This document shows positions 46,695-58,678 of a stretch of DNA of 64,000 nucleotides, one piece after another; position 1 is the first letter of the stretch, and every line of letters starts with the position of its first letter. A program made the position numbers and the translations under genes. This DNA is from Serinibacter arcticus (GTDB taxonomy: Bacteria; Actinomycetota; Actinomycetes; Actinomycetales; Beutenbergiaceae), in contig NZ_PYHR01000002.1 of NCBI RefSeq assembly GCF_003121705.1, positions 1,798,001 through 1,862,000 on the forward strand, read 5' to 3'. The notes beneath the pieces were generated by a model that was not told the DNA's origin, made no database searches, and worked only from the letters and a program-made list of their open reading frames with translations.

Positions 46695-49600
46695 TCAGCG
46701 CGCCGCGAGCTGCTCCATCTGGTCGATCACCAGCGTCACGGCACCAGGCTGCTGGTCGGGCGGGTAGCGGTACTTCACGAGCAGCCGCTTCACCGACGAG
46801 CGCAGCTTCGCCTTGACGTCGTCCCGCGAGCCCCAGTCCGTCTTGGCGTCGCGCCGCATGATGATCACGAGCTCGCGCGCGATGGTCGCGAGCGTGTCAG
46901 TTCCCTGCAGCTCGACCGCCGACGGGTTGGAGGCGACGGCGTCGTAGAAGGCCAGCTCGTCGTTCGAGAGCGGAGGATCGAACTCCGCGCCCCTCGCCCC
47001 CTCGGCGAAGATCTCCTCGCCGAGCTCGAACAGTGCCGACATCACCTCCGCCGACGTGAGGTTGGCGTTGGTGTAGCGCGCCATGATCTCGTCGAGCCGC
47101 TCGCTGAACGCCCGCTGCCGCACGAGGTTGCCTCGAGCGACGCTCCGTGACTCGCTCATCACGAGGTTGCGCAGCTGCTCGATCGCGAGCTGGTGATCGT
47201 CCTGGGCGCGCAACCTATCGAGCATCGCCCGCTCGAACGTGTCGATCCGCACGGGCTCGAGGCCGGCCGCCTCGTAGATCGACAGCACCTCCCCCGAGGC
47301 GACGGATCGCGCGACGAGCCCTGCCAGCTCCACCTCGATCTGGGCCGGGATGGGCAGTCCGGCCGCGCGTCGTTCCTCGGTGTCGAGCTTGCCGATCACC
47401 ACGCGGACCGCGGAGAGGAACTGCACGTCGCCGCGCACCGCCTCGAGCTCCTCCTGGCGTCCGGCCAGCGCCCACGCACGCTGCAGCTGACCCGCCGCCG
47501 TCCGGAACTCCGACGACGGCGACGGCGCCTCCGGATCGGCCCCCGGTCGGGGCGTGCGGAGCCAGCTCGCCGTCGTCATCACGGCCCGCAGGAAGTCGCG
47601 GCTCTGCTTCGCATCCCGCAGCCGCGTCCGCCAGTCGAACCCGACGAGGCACTCGGCCGCGGCAGCCAGAGCCTCGTGGACGAGGGCGACGGCGTCCTCC
47701 ACGGTCCGCCCGACGGGTCGGGTCTCCTGGTCGCTCACCGTGTACTCGGCGAGCGCCGCCGCCAGGTTCTCGGTCACGGGCGCCGACGCCACGAGCAGGC
47801 CCGCGTTCTTCCGCCGAAAGGTGCGGTTGACCCGCGCGAGCGTCTGCATCAGCAGCGCGCCCTTCATCGGACGGTCGAGGTAGAGCGTGTGCAGCGGCGG
47901 AGCGTCGAACCCGGTCAGGAGCATGTCCTTGACGATGACGATCTCGAGCGGGTCGGCGGGGTCGGTCAGCCGCTGCCGGATCGCCCGGTTCGCCGACTCG
48001 CGCCGCACGTGGTCGACGACAGGAGCGGTGTCGCTCGCGGTGCCGGAGTAGACGACCTTGATCACGCCCTCGGAGTCCGCCTCGGCGTGCCACTCCGGCC
48101 GGAGCGCGACGATCTCGTCGTACAGCCGGGCGCAGATCTCGCGGGTCGCGGCGACGACGAGCGCCTTCCCCGGTGCCTTCTCCGGCTCCGATCCCGACAC
48201 CAACGCCGCCATCGCTTCGCGCCGGGCCTCCCAGTGCTCGACGATCTCCCTCGCAAGGACCTCGAGCCGCTGCGGCGCCCCGTAGACGGCGTTCACGCGG
48301 GCCACGCCCTGCTCGATCCTCGCCCGCTCGACGTCGTCGATCCCCGCCGTGATCTCGTCGGCGAGCTCGTCCACCTCCTCGGGCGAGAGGTCGGCCGACT
48401 GCTCCACCTTGAGCAGTCGCGGCTCGAAGTAGACGGGGACGGTCGCGCCGTCGACGACGGCCTGCGTGAGGTCGTAGGTGTGGATGACCTCGCCGAACAC
48501 CGCCCGGGTGTCGCGGTCGGCGAACGAGATGGGCGTGCCGGTGAAGGCGATGAGCGTGGCTCCGGGGAGCGCGTTCTTGAGGTGCCAGGCGTACCCGTCG
48601 AGGTCCTCGTAGTGCGAGCGGTGGGCCTCGTCGACGATGAGCACGATGTTCCGGCGGTCGCTGAGCCGGGGATGGGCGGCACCAGCGTCGCGCTCGGCCT
48701 TGCTGAGCCCGAACTTCTGCAGGGTGGTGAAGTAGATCCCGCCGGTGCGGCGCGCCGACAGGTTCTGCCGCAGCGTCGCGCGGGACGTGACCTGCTCGGG
48801 CTTCTCGGGGAGGAGCTCGCTGCGCGCGAAGGTCTCGTAGAGCTGGCCGTCCAGCTCCGTGCGGTCGGTGACGACCACGATGGTCGGGTTCCGCAACGCC
48901 GGGTGCTTGAGGATCTTCGCCGCGTAGAGCTCCATCTCCATGGACTTGCCCGACCCCTGCGTGTGCCAGACGACGCCGGCCCGGCCGTCCCCGGCGACGG
49001 CCGTCACGGTCGCCTCGACGGCGGCGCGCACGGCCGCGATCTGGTGGGGCTTCGCGACGCGCTTGACGAGGCCGCCCTCACCCGAGTCGAAAGCGACGAA
49101 CCCGTCCAGCAGCTCCAGCAGCCGCTCGGGCGCGAGCAGTCCGTCCGTGAGCTGCTCGAGCGCGTAGGCGAAGTCCTCCTCGGCCAGCGCGACCTCGGCG
49201 GCGGTCTCCACCTCACCGAGCGGTGCGGTGACGCCGTCGGCCGCCGCCTCGGCTCCCTCGGGCCGCCGCGGGGTGCCGTCGGCGTCCACGTTCCAGGGCG
49301 AGTAGTGGTTGAGCGAGGTGAAAGGGGTCCCGTAGCGCGCCGTCACGCCGTCGGAGATGACCGACACGGCGGCGGCGCGGAACGCCGTCGGGAACTCCCG
49401 CACGTACGTCGCGATCTGGGCGTGCGCCGTGTCGAGGGTGGCCGCGGCGTTCGAGGCGTCCTTGAGTTCCGCGATGACAAGGGGGAGTCCGTTGAGGTAG
49501 AGCACGACGTCGAAGCGCCGTTCGAGATCGGGGGTCCGGACCGTGACCTGACGGACGGCAAGGAACGTGTTGTTCACCGCCTCGTGCAGATCGACGATGC

Positions 49601-49961
49601 GGATCGTCGGGGTCCGCTCGATTCCGTCGTCGTCGATGTAGGTGTGGCGGATGCCGTCGACGATCGCGTCGTGGAGACGCTTGTTCTCGGCGATCGCGTC
49701 GCTGGACTGCGGGCGCAGCAGCTCCGCTACGGCGAGGTCGAGGTGATTGGTGGGCACGCCAGGGTTGAGCCGGTGCACCGACTGCCGCACTCGGGAGGGG
49801 ATCACGACGTCGGCCCAGGACTCCCGGTTCGGGCGGACGTTCCCGGAGGCGTCCGTCCACGTGGCGCCGGGGGCGATCTCGCGGCCGTGGAGCGACTCCC
49901 ACCCCAGCTCGGCGAGATGCTCGACGAAGAGGTCCTCGATCTCGGACTCGTGGAACTTCAT
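46695..49961 (-). CDS. hsdR: type I restriction endonuclease subunit R
   Basis: 1088 residues. The N-terminal PD-(D/E)xK nuclease has FDVVLYLNGLPLVIAELKDA (about 150-170). The SF2 translocase has Walker A TQGSGKS near 337, DEAH in LIVDEAHRSHY near 443, and motif VI-type QTLARVNRTFRRK near 710. The C-terminal helical region binds the methylase core. It pumps DNA and cuts unmodified DNA at a distance. It is the last gene of the restriction operon, separated from hsdS by four extra genes. The start overlaps the stop of a 43-residue frame (ATGA). Confidence 0.94.
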   Translation of the reverse strand: MKFHESEIEDLFVEHLAELGWESLHGREIAPGATWTDASGNVRPNRESWADVVIPSRVRQSVHRLNPGVPTNHLDLAVAELLRPQSSDAIAENKRLHDAIVDGIRHTYIDDDGIERTPTIRIVDLHEAVNNTFLAVRQVTVRTPDLERRFDVVLYLNGLPLVIAELKDASNAAATLDTAHAQIATYVREFPTAFRAAAVSVISDGVTARYGTPFTSLNHYSPWNVDADGTPRRPEGAEAAADGVTAPLGEVETAAEVALAEEDFAYALEQLTDGLLAPERLLELLDGFVAFDSGEGGLVKRVAKPHQIAAVRAAVEATVTAVAGDGRAGVVWHTQGSGKSMEMELYAAKILKHPALRNPTIVVVTDRTELDGQLYETFARSELLPEKPEQVTSRATLRQNLSARRTGGIYFTTLQKFGLSKAERDAGAAHPRLSDRRNIVLIVDEAHRSHYEDLDGYAWHLKNALPGATLIAFTGTPISFADRDTRAVFGEVIHTYDLTQAVVDGATVPVYFEPRLLKVEQSADLSPEEVDELADEITAGIDDVERARIEQGVARVNAVYGAPQRLEVLAREIVEHWEARREAMAALVSGSEPEKAPGKALVVAATREICARLYDEIVALRPEWHAEADSEGVIKVVYSGTASDTAPVVDHVRRESANRAIRQRLTDPADPLEIVIVKDMLLTGFDAPPLHTLYLDRPMKGALLMQTLARVNRTFRRKNAGLLVASAPVTENLAAALAEYTVSDQETRPVGRTVEDAVALVHEALAAAAECLVGFDWRTRLRDAKQSRDFLRAVMTTASWLRTPRPGADPEAPSPSSEFRTAAGQLQRAWALAGRQEELEAVRGDVQFLSAVRVVIGKLDTEERRAAGLPIPAQIEVELAGLVARSVASGEVLSIYEAAGLEPVRIDTFERAMLDRLRAQDDHQLAIEQLRNLVMSESRSVARGNLVRQRAFSERLDEIMARYTNANLTSAEVMSALFELGEEIFAEGARGAEFDPPLSNDELAFYDAVASNPSAVELQGTDTLATIARELVIIMRRDAKTDWGSRDDVKAKLRSSVKRLLVKYRYPPDQQPGAVTLVIDQMEQLAAR

Positions 49962-50089
49962 GACTCTCCCCTGTTGTCGAAAAGCTGACTCATGGCGTGG
50001 GCGAAATGCGGCACGCCGGCGCGGCCGACGTGCGCTGACGATCGGCGGGTGAACGAGGATGCGCAGGCATCGATGAAGGCGACGAACAT
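49958..50089 (-). pseudogene. truncated PIN-type toxin stub between antitoxin and hsdR
   Basis: A 43-residue frame starts MFVAFIDACASSFTRRSSAH, which resembles the first strand of VapC/PIN toxins with the first metal-binding Asp (FIDAC). It then ends in unrelated sequence PHFAHAMSQLFDNRGES. PIN toxins are normally about 130-190 residues, so only about the first 10-12 are recognisable. Its ATG overlaps the antitoxin stop (TGATG) and its stop overlaps the hsdR start (ATGA). It looks like a toxin cut away when hsdR was joined, though the tail may belong to a lost or coupling peptide. Confidence 0.5.
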
Positions 50090-50595
50090 CAGTCCTTAAG
50101 TCGCCTCATGGCTCGAAGCGCCTCGTCGTAGTCCGTTCGATCGACGTCGTACAAACCGTCAGCGACCGGCTGGCGCGTGATCTCGCCGAGGAGCTCCCGG
50201 CGCTGGCGGGAACGCTTCTCCCGGTAGGCGAGCACGTCGTCGAGCCGCACGAGCCGGTGCTTCCGAGGGCGTTCGTACGGAAGTTCGCCGTCCTCCAGCA
50301 GCTTCACCAGAGTGGGTCGGGAGACGCCCAGCATCTCGGCCGCCTGGCTCGTCGTGAGTCGCACGGACACCGGGGCGACCGTCACCGCATCTCCTCGCCG
50401 AAGAGCGGAGACGACGTCGACGAGCACCTCGTAGACGTCGGCCGGCAGGTCGACGCTCTCACCTGCCGGGCCCTGCAGTCGCGCAGGCGTCGAGCCGCCG
50501 AGCAGATCGGCCAACGGCTTGAGCGACGACGAGTCGTGCGGGGGAAAGAGCGTGTCGGAGTGGGGTCGGCGGAGGCTCGCGGGAGGGGTCGACAT
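50089..50595 (-). CDS. excisionase-family HTH protein, likely antitoxin
   Basis: 168 residues. The N-terminal ~70 residues are variable. A helix-turn-helix of the excisionase/MerR kind follows: RLTTSQAAEMLGVSRPTLVKLL, then ELPYERPRKHRLVRLDDVLA (about 80-130). The acidic C-terminus YDVDRTDYDEALRAMRRL is as in antitoxins paired with PIN toxins. A stub of such a toxin follows with overlapping codons. It lies inside the restriction operon, so it may now serve as a regulator only. Confidence 0.8.
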   Translation of the reverse strand: MSTPPASLRRPHSDTLFPPHDSSSLKPLADLLGGSTPARLQGPAGESVDLPADVYEVLVDVVSALRRGDAVTVAPVSVRLTTSQAAEMLGVSRPTLVKLLEDGELPYERPRKHRLVRLDDVLAYREKRSRQRRELLGEITRQPVADGLYDVDRTDYDEALRAMRRLKD

Positions 50596-50681: not shown

Positions 50682-51419
50682 TCACAGCAGGCTGGCCGGA
50701 GGCGCGAACAGACCGCCGTCGTCGATCTCTACCTTGGTGGCTATCGGCGGCGTCGCATCGGCCGCTCGCGCAACCGCCAGCGAGTGACCAAGCGCGGTGG
50801 CGTAGAAGTCGGCCGCCGGGCCTGCCAGTTGGGGATCTGACTTCATCAAGGTGCTGAGGGCCTGACGCCACAGTTCGTGCGCGTCGTCCAACAGCACAGC
50901 CATCGCAGGGATCTTCGCAAGCGCTGCGATGACCGTTCGGGTCTCGCCGGACGTGGCCGCGCCTCGCGCCTCGCCGTACAGTGCGCCGATCGCCGACACG
51001 TAATGCCGGATCGCGTCGGCCGACTGCTCCCGGTCGTGCTCGGCGCGGACGGTTTCCTGATCGTCATCGTCATCCCAGCCGTGCTCGTCCTCGAACAACG
51101 TCCCCCACTCGTACGGGTCAGGGTCCTTGATCGTAGGCTTCACCGACCCCCACGCCCCCTTGTCGTCCCAGAGCCGGACCGCGACCGCGCGGCCAATCAG
51201 TTCGTCCTCCTCGCAGATCTCATTGGCGGTGGACAGCACGGCGCCGACCTCGTCTTCGACAGCCGTGGAGTCGCCGTCGGCGAGCGCGCCATCGAGGCGC
51301 CACCCTGCGCCCTCGAGCTGCTGGGAGTGCACGTCGTCGTCAGGCTCCTGAGCTTCGACCTCGACCTGCTGCCCCACACGCTCGAACCAGCTGGGCTCTT
51401 CGAGCTCATCGTGGCTCAT
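50682..51419 (-). CDS. acidic protein of unknown function within the restriction operon
   Basis: 245 residues and no signal or membrane segment. The N-terminal half is strongly acidic (EVEAQEPDDDVHSQQ, and DEHGWDDDDDQETVRAEHD). The C-terminal part (about 135-225) looks like a helical bundle. The ATG overlaps the stop of the membrane protein gene upstream (ATGA), so the two are made together. I recognise no family. Acidity and position inside a restriction operon allow a DNA-mimic or regulator role, but nothing proves it. Confidence 0.75.
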   Translation of the reverse strand: MSHDELEEPSWFERVGQQVEVEAQEPDDDVHSQQLEGAGWRLDGALADGDSTAVEDEVGAVLSTANEICEEDELIGRAVAVRLWDDKGAWGSVKPTIKDPDPYEWGTLFEDEHGWDDDDDQETVRAEHDREQSADAIRHYVSAIGALYGEARGAATSGETRTVIAALAKIPAMAVLLDDAHELWRQALSTLMKSDPQLAGPAADFYATALGHSLAVARAADATPPIATKVEIDDGGLFAPPASLL

Positions 51420-52027
51420 TCGGATTCCGCGACCGTGATGACGCCGTCCATGCCGCGGTCGGGGTGGTAGGACCACTGGAACTCGAGGTCGTCCCACGAG
51501 GCCGTCTGCCGTCCGTCCACGGACGTCGTCTGACCGACATGACCGCCCACCGAGGACGGCATGCTTAGCTCGCCGAACACGCAGGAGATGTCGACGAAGT
51601 CGGCGCCGGTGTACTCGTCCTCGCCCTGGTTGTCGATCGTCAGGGTGGTGCCGCCGTCACCGAGGGCGAACCCGTCGGTATCGCGGACGTCGCACGAGTC
51701 GAGTGCGTCGCCCAGGATCGCGGTGCGGGCCTCGGCCGCGGCGGCGGCCGCCTGCTCCTCGGCACGTTCGTCCGCCGCCGCGCTTCCCGCAAACACCGCA
51801 GCAGTTGCTACGGCGCCGACCACGAGGCCGATGACCCCCGTGAGCGTCGGCAAGAACCACGAACGTTGCGGAGCGGCCGGCGTCGGCGTCGGCGGAAGAA
51901 CCTGCGAGGAGGGTGGCTGGGGGTGCATGGGCTGCGATGACGGTTGGGGCGGAAGGCCCGTGCCCTCCCCGCCGGGGTGGATGGGACGCGACGGATCGGA
52001 CGGCTCGAGTGCGTACGGGTTGGTCAT
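51416..52027 (-). CDS. single-pass membrane protein with Pro-rich N-terminus, within the restriction operon
   Basis: 203 residues. About 55 Pro/Ser/Gln-rich cytoplasmic residues (PPQPSSQPMHPQPPSSQ) precede one membrane helix (FLPTLTGVIGLVVGAVATAA, about 58-80). An Ala/Glu-rich stalk and an outer beta domain of about 100 residues follow, with a Cys pair (DALDSCDVRD and FVDISCVFGE). It begins 33 bases after hsdS and overlaps the next gene. No family is recognised. A membrane protein between hsdS and hsdR is unusual. Confidence 0.75.
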   Translation of the reverse strand: MTNPYALEPSDPSRPIHPGGEGTGLPPQPSSQPMHPQPPSSQVLPPTPTPAAPQRSWFLPTLTGVIGLVVGAVATAAVFAGSAAADERAEEQAAAAAAEARTAILGDALDSCDVRDTDGFALGDGGTTLTIDNQGEDEYTGADFVDISCVFGELSMPSSVGGHVGQTTSVDGRQTASWDDLEFQWSYHPDRGMDGVITVAESE

Positions 52028-52060: not shown

Positions 52061-53257
52061 TCAGGTGACGTCGGAGACGAGGCGCTCCGCATCGCGGATG
52101 GTGAGGCGGCCGGACATCAGCGCGGGCAGGAGAGCGTCGCGGGTTGCTGCCAGTCGCAAGCTCTCCTGCTCGGCAGCCAACGCCCTCGACCAGAGCCCAG
52201 ACATTGCGGCATCGAACGCCGCTATGTCGGAAGGCCCGGGGATCCGCACGAGCTCGTCGAGGTGCCGTCGCTGGATATGCCCCATCGTGGTGGCCTTGTC
52301 GGCAGCAGTTGCCTTAAAGTCGTCGAGCTTGGCGCGAAGCGCCTGGTTGACTAGCCACATCGGCGAGCCCCGGTCCGGGATCACCTTGAAGATGTGCTGG
52401 TTGACGATCGCGGGATCGCGGAACCATCGATGAACCGTGAGCGATCCCGACCACGCGAAGAGCAGGTCGCCAGGCAAGACTGTCTGGTCGATCTCGACCT
52501 CGCGGTCGGAGTAGACCGTCGACCCTCCGATCCCGGAGTTCAGCTCGGCGATCCGCACGACGACCTTTCCGGACCCACTCGCACCCTTGGTGTAGGCGCC
52601 CCCGTTGACGAAACGGGCAAGATCACTCAGGGGCACCGTCTGACCGTCTTTGCCTCGAAGCATCGCCCGGAAGTACGTCGAAGCAAGTTCGTCGCAGCGT
52701 CGGACAACCTCGTCCCCGGCGGCGATCTTGTCGTCCAGCGCGCCCAGCACCTCGGCGATCGCCCGCTGATCAGCCACGGGAGGGACCGTGATGTACATCT
52801 GCCTCAGGTGCGACGGTCCGAAGTGCTTCATTACCGACCCGACGCCCATCGCCTCGATCTGGGCCTTGAAATCGGACGACCGGAGCGCGTACTCGATGAA
52901 CTCTGCTGCGATCCCGCTCCCCGCAGGGCGAAATCGAATCAAGCCCGTGTAGGGCACGGCACCCACGCCTGACGACTTGACGACCGCTACCTCTCCGAGC
53001 GAGGCCGACGTACTCAAGAGAACGTCACCCTCAGCCAGTCGAAACTGGGACCATCGACGATCCACTACGTCCGGGTCCAGGTAGTTGCAACCTTCGAGCA
53101 GATCGGAACCGACCTTCGTCCCGGAGAGGCGGATCAGCGGCGTGCCCTCCGACACGAAGTCCTTCGCCAGGATGCCGGGTCCTTCCCGGAAATCCAGCAC
53201 TTCGGCTAGGGGAAGTCGGGGGTACGACGAGCTCATGTCAAGCCCCTGCTCGCTCAC
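52061..53257 (-). CDS. hsdS: type I restriction-modification specificity subunit S
   Basis: 398 residues. Two target recognition domains (about 15-160 and 210-345) are separated and followed by conserved coiled-coil helices: PPVADQRAIAEVLGALDDKI near 165-185 and the C-terminal DALLPALMSGRLTIRDAERL. The subunit reads the two half-sites of the target and positions HsdM and HsdR. The GTG start overlaps the hsdM stop as GTGA. Codon use and base composition look less GC-rich than in flanking chromosomal genes, as expected of exchanged specificity genes. Confidence 0.93.
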   Translation of the reverse strand: MSEQGLDMSSSYPRLPLAEVLDFREGPGILAKDFVSEGTPLIRLSGTKVGSDLLEGCNYLDPDVVDRRWSQFRLAEGDVLLSTSASLGEVAVVKSSGVGAVPYTGLIRFRPAGSGIAAEFIEYALRSSDFKAQIEAMGVGSVMKHFGPSHLRQMYITVPPVADQRAIAEVLGALDDKIAAGDEVVRRCDELASTYFRAMLRGKDGQTVPLSDLARFVNGGAYTKGASGSGKVVVRIAELNSGIGGSTVYSDREVEIDQTVLPGDLLFAWSGSLTVHRWFRDPAIVNQHIFKVIPDRGSPMWLVNQALRAKLDDFKATAADKATTMGHIQRRHLDELVRIPGPSDIAAFDAAMSGLWSRALAAEQESLRLAATRDALLPALMSGRLTIRDAERLVSDVT

Positions 53258-54870
53258 AGCACCCGCTCCAGCTGCTCGCGCACGACCTTCTCCAGCCGCG
53301 CCGATTCGTCGAACGCCGCGAACAGCTCCGCCTGGAGGCGAGCGATCTTCTCCTCGATGGGCTCGCCGTCGTCCTCCTCGGGCGCCGACCCGACGTACCG
53401 GCCCGGCGTGAGCGCGTACCCGGCCTCCTTGATCTCAGCCAGCGTCGCCGACTTCGCGAACCCGGGCACGTCCTCGTAGGCCTGCTCACCAGCGGACTCG
53501 GTCCCACGCCAGGCGTGGAACGTCCCGGCGATGCGCGCGATGTCCTCATCGGAGAACGTGCGCTCGGCCCGGTCGACCATGTGCCCGAGGTTGCGAGCAT
53601 CGATGAACAGCACCTGCCCGGTCCGGTCGATCGACCCGCGCTCCCCCACCGACTTGTTCTTCGCGAAGAACCACACGCACACCGGAATGCCGGTGGACCG
53701 GAACAGCTGGGTCGGCAGCGCCACCATGCAGGAGACCAGATCGGACTCCACGAGGTTCGCCCGGATGTCACCCTCGCCCCCCGAGTTGGAGCTCATCGAA
53801 CCGTTGGCCATCACGATGCCCGCGCTGCCGGTAGGCGTGAGCTTGCTGAGGATGTGCTGGATCCAGCCGTAGTTGGCGTTGCCGGAGGGCGGGACGCCAT
53901 ACGTCCATCGCGCGTCGCCCTCGTTGCGGGCCCAGTCCTTGATGTTGAACGGCGGGTTCGCCATCGCGAAGTCGACCTTGAGGTCGGGGTGAACGTCCCG
54001 AGAGAACGTGTCCTCCCAGCGCGGGCCGAGATTCGCCGTCATCCCGTGCACCGCGAGGTTCATCCGGGCCATGCGCCACGTGCGCTCGTTGAGCTCCTGC
54101 CCGTAGACGCTCAGCGCCTGCGGGTCGGCGCCGTGCCGCTCGATGAACTTCTCCGCCTGCACGAACATGCCGCCGCTGCCGCAGCACGGGTCGTACACGC
54201 GACCGGAGTAGGGCTCCAGCACCTCCACCAGCACGCGGACCACGCTCGGCGGCGTGTAGAACTCCCCGCCCCGCTTGCCCTCGGCCGCGGCGAACTTGCC
54301 GAGGAAGTACTCGTAGACCTCGCCGAGCACGTCGCGGGCCTTGGAGGCACCGACACCGGTGAAGCGCGCCGAGTTGAACAGGTCCACGAGCTCACCGAGC
54401 CGTCGCTGGTCCAGGTTGTCGCGGTTGTAGATCAGCGGCAGCGTGTTCGCCAGGCTCGGGTTCGCCCCCATGAGGTGCTCCAGGGCGCCGTCGATCAGTT
54501 CTCCGATCGCAGCCGGAGCCACACCCGCCGAACCCTGACGCCCCTTGGCGTGCAGCGCCAGGTACTCCCAGCGCGACGTCTCGGGCACCCAGAACACGCC
54601 CGCGCTCCGGTACTCGTCCGAGTCCTCGAGGAACTGCTCGAGCTGGGACTCCTCGATCCCGTCCGCCCGCAGCTCCGCGGCGATCGCCGCCCGGCGCTCG
54701 GAGAACGCGTCCGAGACGTACTTGAGGAACACGAGTCCGAGGATCACGTCCTTGTACTGGCTCGCGTCCAGCGAACCGCGCAGCTTGTCCGCCGCCTTCC
54801 AGAGCGTGTCCTTCAGCTCCTTCATCGTCGACGGCGCGAGCGCCACCTGCTCCTTCGTCCTACGCGCCAC
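53254..54870 (-). CDS. hsdM: type I restriction-modification DNA methyltransferase subunit M
   Basis: 538 residues. The HsdM N-terminal helical domain begins MKELKDTLWKAADKLRGSLD. The SAM-binding motif is VYDPCCGSGGMFVQ near 228 and the catalytic motif is MANPPFN near 305, so the N6-adenine methylase is intact. The GTG start has GGAG five bases upstream and lies inside the end of the preceding gene (11-base overlap), so the two are translationally coupled. It methylates host sites and forms the core with HsdS. Confidence 0.95.
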   Translation of the reverse strand: MARRTKEQVALAPSTMKELKDTLWKAADKLRGSLDASQYKDVILGLVFLKYVSDAFSERRAAIAAELRADGIEESQLEQFLEDSDEYRSAGVFWVPETSRWEYLALHAKGRQGSAGVAPAAIGELIDGALEHLMGANPSLANTLPLIYNRDNLDQRRLGELVDLFNSARFTGVGASKARDVLGEVYEYFLGKFAAAEGKRGGEFYTPPSVVRVLVEVLEPYSGRVYDPCCGSGGMFVQAEKFIERHGADPQALSVYGQELNERTWRMARMNLAVHGMTANLGPRWEDTFSRDVHPDLKVDFAMANPPFNIKDWARNEGDARWTYGVPPSGNANYGWIQHILSKLTPTGSAGIVMANGSMSSNSGGEGDIRANLVESDLVSCMVALPTQLFRSTGIPVCVWFFAKNKSVGERGSIDRTGQVLFIDARNLGHMVDRAERTFSDEDIARIAGTFHAWRGTESAGEQAYEDVPGFAKSATLAEIKEAGYALTPGRYVGSAPEEDDGEPIEEKIARLQAELFAAFDESARLEKVVREQLERVL

Positions 54871-56872
54871 GGGGGCTCCTCTCCTCGAAACTCTCACTGG
54901 CCTGATCCAGAACGATCCTGACGGAACCGTCCGAAATTCCTTCGGCGATCGCCCGGCGCAGCTGCGCCAGACGATCGAGCTCGCCACGCAGCTGGGACTC
55001 ACGTTCCGCCACCACGGCCCACGCCTCCTCCACCGTTCGAGCCGCCTCCGGGGTGACCCGCGGCAGGAACCACCGCTGCCAGCGGCGATCACCAACCGGC
55101 CGGTCGCAGACGGCGGCCGCCGCGAGGTGCGGGCTGACGCCGGACCCGGGAGTGACCCGGATGACGCGAGCCGGCGTCGCGACGAGCGCCCCGCCGTCGA
55201 CATCCACCACGGCGGCGGGTCGTGGGGTCGCTGTGATCACGACATCCCCTGGCTGCGTCAGACGCGCCGCGGGAAGAACCTGGGCCAGCGTGAACGCGTC
55301 GACACGCCGGTCGACGTCGACGACTCCGGCGATCACGTCGGCGGCGGTCAGCACGCGCAGCCCCGAACCCGAACGATCGCTGGTTCGCTCACCCAGCGAC
55401 TCCGGGACCCGCGCTCCGGGTATCACGCGCAGCTGCCCGAGCCCGATGAGTGCCTCGATCGTGACGAGCTCCGACACATTCGGCACGTGGGACGAGACGA
55501 TCAGCGGCAGTTCCTCCCGGGGCGGCGTCGCCGAGGATCGAACGAGGTCGGCGGCTCGCTCGGCGAGGGCGAGATCGCTGCTCGACCGCGCCCAGCGGTC
55601 ACGGTCCGCGAGCGTGAGGAGGCTTCCCCTGCGCAGGACCAGGGCCCGGGTGCGGACGACGGAGGCGTGCGCGAAGGAGTGGCGGCGCCCCGCGTCGTCA
55701 CCCTCGACCGCGGCGAGGACGTCCGTCACCAGGTCGTCCAGAACGACGCCGGGGAGCGTGCCGCCCACGCCCGCGAGCCGGGCCACGTCGGTGACGGTGG
55801 TCCACCGTCTCTCGAGCGCCGTGGCGTCCATGGGGTCGCCCATCACCCAGAGCGTGACTGACTCGCGTGGTCGCCCGGGGATGAGACCGGGAGGAAGCCC
55901 GACGATCGCGCGCACGCGACCGGTGCGCAGGAGATCCGCTCGCAGACCGTCCTCGAACGAGACACCGAGTCCACCGGCGAAGGCCGAGCCCCTGCCGATG
56001 AGCACCGCCCTCGCACCCGGTGACATCCCGAGCGCGATCTCGTCGGCGTGCTCGAGGGCCTCGGCCGCGTCCCCCACCCCGGTCAGATCGGCAACCACGA
56101 GTGGACCGCCGGGCCGGCGCCCAGCCTCGACCACGATCCAGCCGTGGGCGTGCATTCGACGGCGGTGGGCCCGGGCTGCCGCTCCGCCCCCCTGCGACGG
56201 AACGACGAGCCTGGCTCCCTCCCAGCCACCGACGACCCGCGGCATCCCCGCGGCGAGGTCACCATCGCCCGGGAAGGCGTCGACGACGGCGACATCCTCG
56301 CCCGGCCCCCAGCCGGCCAGTGCGAGTGCCACCCGGGTCACCAGGCTGACCGCCGTGGAGTGGATCCTCGGCGAGGAGCCGGCCCGGCGCCGTCGAACCT
56401 CGAGCGCGCTGCCCGGGTCGGGAACGGCGTCGAGCATCAGGGTGACGAATCCGGCGATCTGTCGAGCGTGGGCACCGAGGGCCTCGATCTCAGCGACGAG
56501 AAACGCATCGTCCGGATCGAGGTCGTCAGCGAGTGACACGAGTCCCGCCGGGCCGAGTCCGCCGAGATGCTCGCCGGTGAGCCGGGCAAGGACGAGGAGC
56601 GCCTCGGCACCCGACGCGACCTCCGCCGTCGAGAGCCCGGGAATCTCGAGGTCGCCGTGCAGGGCGAGCAGCGCGGCCTCGCCGACGCGGTCGCGCCCGG
56701 TGTCCCTGAGCCATGCGAGGAGCTCATCCGCCCGGATCAGCTCGCCGGACGGGAAGGGAGTCGATGTGTCTGCTGAGCGCGTGCGCCACATAGAGACGAC
56801 CGGACGGCGCACGTCGAGCGCACGCGCCACATCCGCATAGCGGAGGCGCAGGGAGCTCAGGTCGACGGGCAT
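54860..56872 (-). CDS. HTH plus degenerate N6-methylase-like protein with HsdS-like C-terminus, first gene of the restriction operon
   Basis: 670 residues. The N-terminus has an HTH-like region RYADVARALDVRRPVVSMWR (about 10-55). The middle (about 170-420) has a methylase-like order, but the SAM loop is DAFPGDGDLAAG and the expected NPPF is replaced by VADLTGVGD, so catalysis is doubtful. The C-terminal ~170 residues resemble an HsdS recognition domain ending in a helix ESQLRGELDRLAQLRRAIAE. It could be a regulator, an extra specificity factor or part of a larger complex. It is coupled to hsdM and has an operator-like palindrome upstream. Confidence 0.75.
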   Translation of the reverse strand: MPVDLSSLRLRYADVARALDVRRPVVSMWRTRSADTSTPFPSGELIRADELLAWLRDTGRDRVGEAALLALHGDLEIPGLSTAEVASGAEALLVLARLTGEHLGGLGPAGLVSLADDLDPDDAFLVAEIEALGAHARQIAGFVTLMLDAVPDPGSALEVRRRRAGSSPRIHSTAVSLVTRVALALAGWGPGEDVAVVDAFPGDGDLAAGMPRVVGGWEGARLVVPSQGGGAAARAHRRRMHAHGWIVVEAGRRPGGPLVVADLTGVGDAAEALEHADEIALGMSPGARAVLIGRGSAFAGGLGVSFEDGLRADLLRTGRVRAIVGLPPGLIPGRPRESVTLWVMGDPMDATALERRWTTVTDVARLAGVGGTLPGVVLDDLVTDVLAAVEGDDAGRRHSFAHASVVRTRALVLRRGSLLTLADRDRWARSSSDLALAERAADLVRSSATPPREELPLIVSSHVPNVSELVTIEALIGLGQLRVIPGARVPESLGERTSDRSGSGLRVLTAADVIAGVVDVDRRVDAFTLAQVLPAARLTQPGDVVITATPRPAAVVDVDGGALVATPARVIRVTPGSGVSPHLAAAAVCDRPVGDRRWQRWFLPRVTPEAARTVEEAWAVVAERESQLRGELDRLAQLRRAIAEGISDGSVRIVLDQASESFEERSPRGA

Positions 56873-57021: not shown

Positions 57022-57309
57022 GTGCCTAGCTACACGATTCGTGAGGTGCACGTCGTTGCACCCGGCACCACCTGCGAGCACGTGCTCACCGTCCGGTACA
57101 CCGTCGGGGCGGAGACCTCCTTGCGGGCCGCCAGCCGCGAGCAGGTCCACGCCTGGATCACCGCCGGCAACGCCTTCGCCACTCACAACGCCCGCACCGG
57201 CGCTTCCGCACCGGTCGTCGCGCGCACCAGCCTCCGCGGCACGCGCTACATCGCCACGGTCGCCAATGGCCGCGAGAGCGACAACCTCCTCAGCCTTCCC
57301 CGCTTCTGA
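57022..57309 (+). CDS. DUF3892 domain protein
   Basis: 95 residues. It starts VPSYTIREVHVVAPGTTCEH and ends TVANGRESDNLLSLPRF, the hallmark ending of DUF3892. The small beta-rich domain covers the whole chain. GAGGGAG five bases before the GTG favours this start over an upstream ATG at 56944, which would run through the operator region. The function of the family is unknown. It is divergent from the restriction operon and followed 19 bases later by a lipoprotein gene. Confidence 0.75.
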   Translation: MPSYTIREVHVVAPGTTCEHVLTVRYTVGAETSLRAASREQVHAWITAGNAFATHNARTGASAPVVARTSLRGTRYIATVANGRESDNLLSLPRF

Positions 57310-57328: not shown

Positions 57329-58108
57329 ATGACCACTCAGATCAATGCACGCTTCAGTGCACGCCGTTCGGGCGCTGCCATCGCGGTCGCCGCATTCCTC
57401 GGCCTCGGCCTCGGCGCCTGCTCGACCGACGCCGACGCCGACGCCGACGCGTCGCCGTCGCCGAGCAGCTCGTCGTCGGCCCCCTCCGCCGAGCCGTCGA
57501 CCGGCACCGCGAGCCCGACGGCCACCCCGTCGGCGACCGCGACGCCCACTCCCACCCCGACGCCGACGCCGGAACCCGAGCCCGAGCCCGACCCGAACGC
57601 CTTCGCGCCGACGACCGTCACCGGTACGGGCGCGAGCGTCGTCCCGGTCCCCGCCGGATCCTCCCTCGGCACCATCGCCGCCTCGCACGAGGGCTCGAGC
57701 AACTTCGCGCTCTGGGCGATGGACGCCTCGAACAACCAGCTCGACCTCCTCGTCAACGAGATCGGCAGCTACACCGGCACCGTTCCGTGGGGCTTCCGCG
57801 ATGACGACGTCACGAGCGTCCAGGTCGAGGCCGACGGGAACTGGTCACTCACGTTCTCCTCGGTCTCCTCCGCTCCTCAGCTCACGCTGCCCGCGTCGGG
57901 CACCGGCGACACCGTGCTGATCTACCAGGGTGGGGCAGCGACGCCGTCGTTCACCCACCAGGGTGAGAGCAACTTCGCCGTGTGGGTGTACGGCAGCTCC
58001 TCCGACCTGCTCATCAACGAGATCGGCGCCTACACGGGAACCCACGCGCTGAAGGCCGGACCCGCGTTCATCGTGGTGGAGGCCGACGGCGCCTGGACGA
58101 TCGGCTGA
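57329..58108 (+). CDS. lipoprotein with low-complexity linker and internal duplication
   Basis: 259 residues. The signal peptide has a lipobox LGLGAC (Cys near 31). An Asp/Ala/Ser/Pro/Thr-rich linker ends in a PTPTPTPEPEPEPDP tract (to about residue 90). Two related domains follow: SNFALWAMDASNNQLDLLVN with EIGSYTGT, and SNFAVWVYGSSSDLLINEIG with AYTGT; each closes with VEADG and a Trp. The duplicated beta modules suggest a surface binding function. Its closeness to DUF3892 and DUF898-like genes suggests a small envelope cluster. Confidence 0.78.
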   Translation: MTTQINARFSARRSGAAIAVAAFLGLGLGACSTDADADADASPSPSSSSSAPSAEPSTGTASPTATPSATATPTPTPTPTPEPEPEPDPNAFAPTTVTGTGASVVPVPAGSSLGTIAASHEGSSNFALWAMDASNNQLDLLVNEIGSYTGTVPWGFRDDDVTSVQVEADGNWSLTFSSVSSAPQLTLPASGTGDTVLIYQGGAATPSFTHQGESNFAVWVYGSSSDLLINEIGAYTGTHALKAGPAFIVVEADGAWTIG

Positions 58109-58222: not shown

Positions 58223-58678
58223 ATGACCTATGCGTTCACGCCCGAACCTCAGCAGCAGCCTCACGCGATCGCACCGCAGTCCGGTGTCCCCGTCGTCGTG
58301 AACAACTACCCGTCTGGTCCGACGCCCGTGGCGTCGGGTCACCAGAGCATCCAGATCCCCCTCGGCGTCCCGATGTATCGATTCGACGGCGGTGCAGCCA
58401 ACTACTTCGGAGCCAGTCTCGCCGCCGCTCTCGTCACCATCCTGACGCTGGGCATCTGCCTCCCCTGGGCCATGGTGATCATGCAGCGGTGGCAGACCAA
58501 GCACACCTTCCTCTACGGACGTCGACTTCGCTTCACCGGCACTGCACCTGGACTGTTCGGCCAGTGGATCAAGTGGTGGGCACTCACTCTGATCACCTTC
58601 GGCGTCTACTCGTTCTGGGTGCAGCCGCGACTGACCGCGTGGATCGTGCAGCACCAGGAGTTCGACCCGGTCGGCTGA
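58223..58678 (+). CDS. DUF898-like (YjgN-type) small membrane protein
   Basis: 151 residues. About 60 Pro/Gln-rich residues (PEPQQQPHAIAPQSGVPVVV) precede two membrane segments (FGASLAAALVTILTLGICLP and KWWALTLITFGVYSFWV) around the segment TFLYGRRLRFTGTAPGLFGQ, which is typical of DUF898. The Pro-rich tail resembles that of the membrane protein in the restriction operon. AGGGGA before the ATG sets the start. Function unknown. Confidence 0.75.
   Translation: MTYAFTPEPQQQPHAIAPQSGVPVVVNNYPSGPTPVASGHQSIQIPLGVPMYRFDGGAANYFGASLAAALVTILTLGICLPWAMVIMQRWQTKHTFLYGRRLRFTGTAPGLFGQWIKWWALTLITFGVYSFWVQPRLTAWIVQHQEFDPVG

What the first reader, a model, noticed from the sequence alone, without database searches (positions are those of the whole stretch)
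50682..52027. Coupled membrane/acidic protein pair embedded between hsdS and hsdR
Two unrecognised genes with an ATGA overlap sit inside a type I restriction operon. One is a single-pass protein with a Pro-rich inner tail and a Cys-pair outer domain; the other is a strongly acidic soluble protein. Insertion of coupled genes inside a restriction operon often marks accessory defence modules. The membrane member hints at a sensor/effector arrangement at the envelope, and the acidic member could control the restriction complex or mimic DNA. This is the best candidate for an undescribed system in the window.
Basis: partly seen in the sequence, partly recalled or inferred. Interest (0 to 1): 0.68.

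Follow-up and report, generated by a model that had tools for sequence, protein, structure and literature searches.

The report
Envelope protein recruited to restriction operons
Inside a bacterial DNA-cutting defence operon sit two unnamed genes: one makes a membrane-anchored surface protein whose undescribed family keeps turning up beside this one type of defence system, perhaps as an outer barrier to viral DNA, and the other makes a rare, very acidic protein that is not its regular partner.

Summary
In detail: an ATGA-overlapping membrane/acidic gene pair lies between hsdS and hsdR, followed by a third, HTH gene. The reading as one coupled module is not supported. The membrane protein (P0001) carries an undescribed extracytoplasmic domain ("P1"). 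P1 proteins sit at 12 of 33 loci of one type I RM subtype, marked by a 670-aa catalytically dead, HsdS-like protein ("MX") upstream of hsdM, against 0 of 40 other type I loci. They lie between hsdS and hsdR or divergent from MX, and come from several lineages. Other copies sit in prophage lysogeny modules, and four lie beside Ltp superinfection-exclusion genes. The acidic protein (P0002) has two distant relatives, one directly after an hsdS of this subtype and one by a different RM system; in the closest sister operon its slot holds a DUF4041/GIY-YIG protein. Best explanation: the hsdS-hsdR interval is a variable accessory slot. P0001 is an envelope exclusion protein co-carried with restriction, hindering phage DNA entry (inferred, about 0.4). 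P0002 is separate slot cargo, perhaps a modulator of restriction. New variant of a known kind: type I RM with embedded accessory genes.

The parts
51416..52027 (-). P0001: Pro-rich N-terminal tail, one transmembrane helix, extracytoplasmic domain with two Cys (P1 family)
   Evidence: AF2 domain 106-203 at pLDDT about 97
50682..51419 (-). P0002: acidic soluble slot protein, ATGA overlap with P0001
   Evidence: relatives
50089..50595 (-). P0003: HTH_17/excisionase-type DNA-binding protein, third slot gene
   Evidence: Pfam 3.1e-13, TIGR01764 1.8e-14; relative in sister slot L015 E 6.2e-53
46695..49961 (-). hsdR
   Evidence: PF11867 9e-87, PF04313 3.7e-32; TIGR00348 5e-142
52061..53257 (-). hsdS
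   Evidence: PF01420 7.9e-12; PADLOC Specificity_I 1.3e-87
53254..54870 (-). hsdM (start placed at GTG 54870)
   Evidence: PF02384 1.6e-107, PF12161 2e-24
54860..56872 (-). MX: 670-aa protein, HsdS-like C-terminal part, no methylase catalytic motif
   Evidence: hhalign to HsdS family E 4e-6; no [NDS]PP[YFWLH] in 29 of 30 members
57022..57309 (+). DUF3892 protein, divergent from MX
   Evidence: PF13031 3.8e-11
57329..58108 (+). putative lipoprotein with a repeat shared with L015 and L074, divergent from MX
   Evidence: lipobox LGAC read from the sequence
58223..58678 (+). DUF898-type membrane protein; a DUF898 protein also lies upstream of MX in L083
   Evidence: PF05987 9.1e-14; for L083

Best explanation
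The genes are cargo of the hsdS-hsdR accessory slot of one type I RM subtype (MX-hsdM-hsdS-[slot]-hsdR). Shown: P0001 belongs to an envelope-domain family that is found at this subtype far more than at other type I loci. Inferred: P0001 works like a superinfection-exclusion protein. Its tail stays inside, one helix anchors it, and the outer domain hinders phage DNA entry, while HsdMSR destroys DNA that gets in, giving two layers of defence from one locus. P0002 is not its obligate partner; it is a fast-evolving acidic RM-associated protein, most likely a modulator of restriction or cargo with its own role. P0003 is probably a regulator.
For: P1 at 12 of 33 MX loci against 0 of 40 other hsdM loci, Fisher 1.9e-5. 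P1 lies 27-41 nt after hsdS, or overlaps it by 4 nt, in window, L015, L150, L152 and L154. P1s at MX loci come from several lineages: starred branches force at least 5 changes for the divergent ones, while 9 of 9 slot copies fall in one starred set of 15 rows, so recruitment was repeated. Other envelope proteins take the same divergent place: at least one listed envelope module at 23 of 33 MX loci against 1 of 40 (those queries came from MX loci, so this figure is biased upward). Ltp genes (PF07553, a superinfection-exclusion family) adjoin P1 in L018, L020, L125 and L192, and one sits in the slot of L080; 24 of 109 genomes carry Ltp at all. P1 sits in lysogeny modules beside ImmA/IrrE and/or integrase in L018, L193, L208/L130 and L212, the kind of module that carries ltp in phage TP-J34, whose product stops DNA injection (PMC3952083).
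Against: No functional data. P0001 has no Ltp domain. 21 of 33 MX loci lack P1. 27 of 39 P1 places in the order are not at MX loci; of 26 of these examined only 3 lie near other hsd genes. The domain's strongly conserved W-YHPD-G motif is more like a binding site than a fast-evolving exclusion surface. No structural relative was found. Shared cargo of mobile elements could give the same pattern.
Confidence: 0.4

Rival explanations
1. P0001 and the other envelope genes are surface-protein cargo that travels in the same mobile islands and prophages as the RM operon, without a defence role and without working with HsdMSR.
For: P1 is mostly elsewhere: 27 of 39 places in the order are not at MX loci. 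Some relatives carry PASTA, zinc-ribbon or Big_2 domains. 25 viral contigs carry it.
Against: 0 of 40 other type I loci in the same order carry it, and the position close after hsdS inside the operon is kept in 5 loci. Generic cargo should not single out one RM subtype.
Confidence: 0.27
2. P0001 is a membrane sensor or tether of the RM complex: the outer domain senses adsorption or envelope stress and the Pro-rich inner tail recruits or licenses HsdMSR at the entry site.
For: Anatomy: tail, one helix, outer domain. Close 3' coupling to hsdS in 5 loci. Link to one RM subtype.
Against: The inner tail is poorly conserved across the family and is short or absent in relatives that keep the outer domain behind a lipobox-like sequence. 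No contact with Hsd subunits was tested.
Confidence: 0.18
3. P0002 is an acidic DNA mimic or anti-restriction subunit that damps HsdR against self DNA.
For: pI 4.17; the two relatives, at 21-23% alignment identity to it, keep pI 4.2 and lie beside RM genes.
Against: No ArdA, Ocr or other match over the cut-offs in Pfam, PADLOC or NCBIfam, and none in PDB sequences. The single-sequence model is unusable.
Confidence: 0.15
4. P0001 and P0002 are a dedicated two-gene defence module.
For: ATGA overlap and a shared slot.
Against: The pairing is found only in the window among the P1 loci surveyed; each occurs at RM loci without the other next to it.
Confidence: 0.06

Closest known systems
Type I RM islands with genes embedded between hsdS and hsdR (DarTG2/RptR island, PMC12255303; abstract and passages read)
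   Same: Accessory genes inside the type I operon at exactly this interval; [quoted passage not shown]
   Different: The cargo here is an envelope-domain protein plus an acidic protein and an HTH protein; the operon begins with MX.
Ltp superinfection-exclusion lipoproteins (PF07553; PMC3952083, abstract and passages read)
   Same: Membrane-anchored outer-face domain, found in lysogeny modules; Ltp genes lie beside P1 genes in 4 loci and in the slot of L080.
   Different: P0001 has no Ltp domain and a predicted transmembrane helix instead of a lipid anchor; exclusion by P1 is untested.
DUF4041/T5orf172 GIY-YIG proteins
   Same: Occupies P0002's place in the sister operon L015, between the P1 gene and the HTH gene.
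   Different: No DUF4041 or T5orf172 match in P0002.
DNA mimics Ocr and ArdA (recalled, no call)
   Same: Small acidic proteins linked to type I restriction.
   Different: No sequence match; encoded by the RM operon rather than by the invader.

Membership tests
Type I restriction-modification system | HsdR, HsdM and HsdS in one operon, HsdM with an NPPF motif | tested here: met
   Pfam/NCBIfam; NPPF/NPPY in 28 of 28 HsdM of this subtype
Type I restriction-modification system | Restriction and methylation activity | not testable with these tools
   needs experiment
Ltp superinfection-exclusion family (P0001) | PF07553 repeats | tested here: not met
   no PF07553 hit for P0001; none among the 25 families listed for the 64 rows of A5
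Ltp superinfection-exclusion family (P0001) | membrane-anchored domain on the outer face | tested here: inconclusive
   one hydrophobic helix; relatives with lipobox-like sequences; orientation not measured
Ltp superinfection-exclusion family (P0001) | blocks phage DNA injection | not testable with these tools
   needs phage assays
Known anti-phage defence proteins (P0001, P0002) | match to PADLOC-DB 2.0.0 | tested here: not met
   0 families at E up to 1 for both
DNA mimic / anti-restriction protein (P0002) | strong net negative charge | tested here: met
   pI 4.17, -14.3 per 100 aa; relatives pI 4.17-4.19
DNA mimic / anti-restriction protein (P0002) | sequence or fold of ArdA/Ocr type | tested here: inconclusive
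   no Pfam or PDB sequence match; model pLDDT 48, no fold search made
Dedicated two-gene pair such as toxin-antitoxin (P0001-P0002) | conserved two-gene pairing | tested here: not met
   pairing seen only in the window

The most novel reading that the evidence does not exclude
MX-type type I RM loci are two-tier defence systems: an envelope arm drawn from interchangeable outer-face proteins (P1 domain, Ltp, and others) hinders phage DNA entry, while MX-HsdMSR restricts what enters, possibly with the catalytically dead MX protein coordinating both arms. P0001 is the envelope arm of the window's system.
Probability: 0.22. Interest if true: 0.78.

Novelty: new variant of a known kind. Interest (0 to 1): 0.55.

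Why it matters
It gives an undescribed envelope-domain family, with no Pfam or NCBIfam match over the domain, a testable setting: phage entry at the membrane next to a restriction operon. If the envelope arm is real, it joins two layers of phage defence usually treated apart, exclusion and restriction, in one locus. It would also allow a direct test of whether a type I system acts together with membrane proteins at the entry site.

Tried and rejected
Coupled-pair reading: rejected, because each gene occurs at RM loci without the other next to it.

P0002 relatives: P0002 alone found none in genome contigs, plasmids or phages, and besides the window one relative in the 24 genomes of the family; with A3, 80 genomes of the phylum gave only the window. 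The hit in G147 lies inside a 619-aa frame, called elsewhere as a 610-aa gene, and was dropped. With A1, 8 of 396 genomes had E up to 0.01: the window, L020, and L027, kept after pairwise tests (P0002 itself against L027 gave only 19 bits, E 0.063). I dropped L026, L029 and L030 after reading their frames, and L028 and L031 unread.

Structures: P0002 single-sequence model, pLDDT 48, not searched. The P0001 model gave no significant match in the PDB or viral libraries (best Foldseek E 0.02 and 0.052; VIA best Z 5.4, on the long helix only). The absence of a match does not show a new fold.

Cross-phylum claim: the 'Sporosarcina' locus L173 seemed to carry MX and P1 in another phylum. Its GC is 0.64 and its HsdM is 98.5% identical to that of L076, so I treat it as likely contamination. 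The P1 domain itself is also in other records titled as Clostridia, Lachnospiraceae or Roseiflexaceae.

MX as methylase: profile comparison to HsdM was weak (hhalign probability 0.4, one 68-column stretch); the HsdS-like end is better (E 4e-6). An N-terminal HTH in MX is my reading of the sequence only.

Literature: the listings showed no title or abstract on envelope proteins as accessories of a type I RM subtype, and none on MX. Only two papers were opened (abstracts and passages).

Full report
WHAT IS THERE. Both genes are at the stated coordinates with an ATGA overlap. Their operon on the minus strand reads MX (54860-56872), hsdM (53254-54870), hsdS (52061-53257), P0001 (51416-52027), P0002 (50682-51419), P0003, an HTH_17/excisionase-type protein (50089-50595), and hsdR (46695-49961). 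The hsd genes are confirmed by Pfam and NCBIfam or PADLOC, P0003 by Pfam and NCBIfam. Neither P0001 nor P0002 passes a curated cut-off in Pfam or NCBIfam, and neither has a PADLOC match or a PHROGs match better than E 0.015. Divergent from MX lie a DUF3892 gene, a putative lipoprotein and a DUF898-type membrane gene.

P0001. It has a Pro-rich tail, one hydrophobic helix and a C-terminal domain with two Cys. With 63 relatives in the alignment, AlphaFold2 gives the domain (106-203) at pLDDT about 97. Foldseek and VIA found no convincing relative, and a profile search of PDB sequences found none. In the 64 rows T167, G172, W185, Y187, H188, P189, D190 and G192 are invariant and C112, P157 and S186 nearly so; the second Cys, C149, is not conserved at 90%. 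Several relatives carry the domain behind a lipobox-like sequence, which places it on the outer face by inference. I call the domain P1.

WHERE P1 OCCURS. The profile A4 hit 38 of 392 genomes of the order, 39 places. Twelve places are at MX-hsdMSR loci. Of the other 27 I examined 26 (one, in G276, was not fetched); three lie near other type I genes (L125, 67 nt from an hsdS; L124, 2.5 kb from an hsdR fragment; L138, 3.4 kb from hsdM), the rest do not. A scan of genome contigs gave 45 loci, 11 of them with MX (one is the likely contaminant L173), and L147 with hsdR 1.3 kb downstream; L161, L167 and L168 have more distant HsdM-like genes nearby. Twenty-five viral contigs also carry it, some of them near-copies of each other.

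CONTROL. I searched the 670-aa MX protein in 396 genomes of the order: 31 have it. I read 33 MX loci: the window, three found earlier, and 29 fetched. Three of these are on contigs under 6.1 kb, and two of those three (L081, L088) may be halves of one locus. As control I took 40 of the 94 non-MX places among the 106 hsdM_N places, going down the list and leaving out some, short contigs among them; it is not a random draw. P1 was found at 12 of 33 MX loci and 0 of 40 controls (Fisher 1.9e-5). A coiled-coil envelope protein with a CYW motif was at 11 of 33 against 1 of 40, and any listed envelope module at 23 of 33 against 1 of 40. Hits of a query on its own source locus were not counted. The queries other than P1 were picked mostly from MX loci, so their figures favour my reading; P1 was the given gene. 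Loci are not independent by descent.

POSITION AND DESCENT. P1 follows hsdS within 41 nt, or overlaps it, in window, L015, L150, L152 and L154; it comes 1.6-1.9 kb after it in L149, L153 and L155. Elsewhere it is divergent, upstream of MX; L154 has both. On a 46-row tree the 9 slot copies fall in one starred set of 15 rows with 2 phage and 4 other copies, while the 13 divergent copies need 9 changes (starred branches force 5). P1 was therefore probably recruited to these loci more than once.

THE SLOT. In the MX loci surveyed the hsdS-hsdR interval is empty or nearly so in 10 (L063, L070, L072, L074, L079, L085, L086, L089, L090, L091). Elsewhere it holds different modules. By reading of sequence only these include AlbA_2-like and DUF1016-like proteins and RelE/HigB-like pairs. 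By Pfam they include a DUF4041/GIY-YIG protein in L015, an Ltp protein in L080 and a NYN protein in L064. That the interval is a hotspot for defence genes is known from another lineage (PMC12255303, passages read).

P0002. Only two relatives were found. One is L020 7676-8410(-) (BLAST E 4e-7), which overlaps hsdS by 4 nt in an MX locus. The other is L027/L032 (found at E 0.0017 with A1; BLAST E 2e-7 against L020; hhalign probability 87; no significant direct similarity to P0002). It lies about 570 nt from a gene that I read as a GIY-YIG/helicase protein next to methylase-like frames. All three are about equally acidic. P0002 is not tied to P0001: the sister operon L015 has P1, then a DUF4041/GIY-YIG protein, then a P0003 relative (E 6.2e-53), then hsdR.

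MECHANISM. Shown: link of P1 to this RM subtype and its position. Supported by the tree: repeated recruitment. Inferred: outer-face anchoring. Proposed: P0001 hinders DNA entry. The reasons are contextual. Ltp genes adjoin P1 in L018, L020, L125 and L192; the L020 Ltp protein matches a PHROG named superinfection exclusion at 2.5e-41. P1 also sits with ImmA/IrrE or integrase in L018, L193, L208/L130 and L212. In phage TP-J34 ltp lies in the lysogeny module and its product stops DNA injection (PMC3952083, passages). Against: no Ltp domain in P0001, a conserved motif more like a binding site, 21 of 33 MX loci without P1, most P1 copies away from MX loci, and no functional data.

MX. Across 30 members I found no [NDS]PP[YFWLH] tetrapeptide except one SPPW in L064, while 28 of 28 HsdM carry NPPF or NPPY. 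Its C-terminal part resembles HsdS (hhalign E 4e-6); similarity to HsdM is weak. It is probably a dead MTase/specificity-like subunit or regulator (inference).

VERDICT. A real accessory slot in a recognisable type I RM subtype, with an undescribed envelope family that is enriched there. The pair as such is not a unit. New variant of a known kind.

Noticed in passing
54860-56872(-): MX: a 670-aa protein without any Pfam match heads this type I operon and was found in 31 of 396 genomes of the order; its end resembles HsdS and it lacks the methylase catalytic motif.
   Followed up: partly
L063, L070, L076, L078, L081, L129, L161-L163, L167, L168, L170: A single-pass coiled-coil protein ending in a conserved CYW...CG-W domain is a frequent neighbour of P1 genes (all but L063 of these loci), also outside RM loci.
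   Followed up: partly
L065, L072, L079, L084, L085, L086: A conserved coiled-coil protein of about 480 aa with no match over Pfam's cut-off (L072 tested) lies divergent from MX.
   Followed up: no
L015 7574-9238(-): A DUF4041 plus T5orf172/MUG113 (GIY-YIG type) protein sits in the hsdS-hsdR slot where the window has P0002.
   Followed up: yes
L032 9681-15855(-): A P0002 relative lies next to what reads as an 856-aa GIY-YIG/helicase protein and methylase-like frames, a different RM-like system.
   Followed up: no
L173: A record titled Sporosarcina has GC 0.64 and an HsdM 98.5% identical to that of L076: likely contamination.
   Followed up: yes
L018 and L019: The same P1-bearing prophage-like element appears near the ends of two contigs of one genome (G022), with identical P1 scores.
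   Followed up: no
G000:C2:2616095 and G000:C2:3502146: The window's genome has two further HsdM_N loci besides this one; the first was read as control locus L235 and carries no P1.
   Followed up: partly
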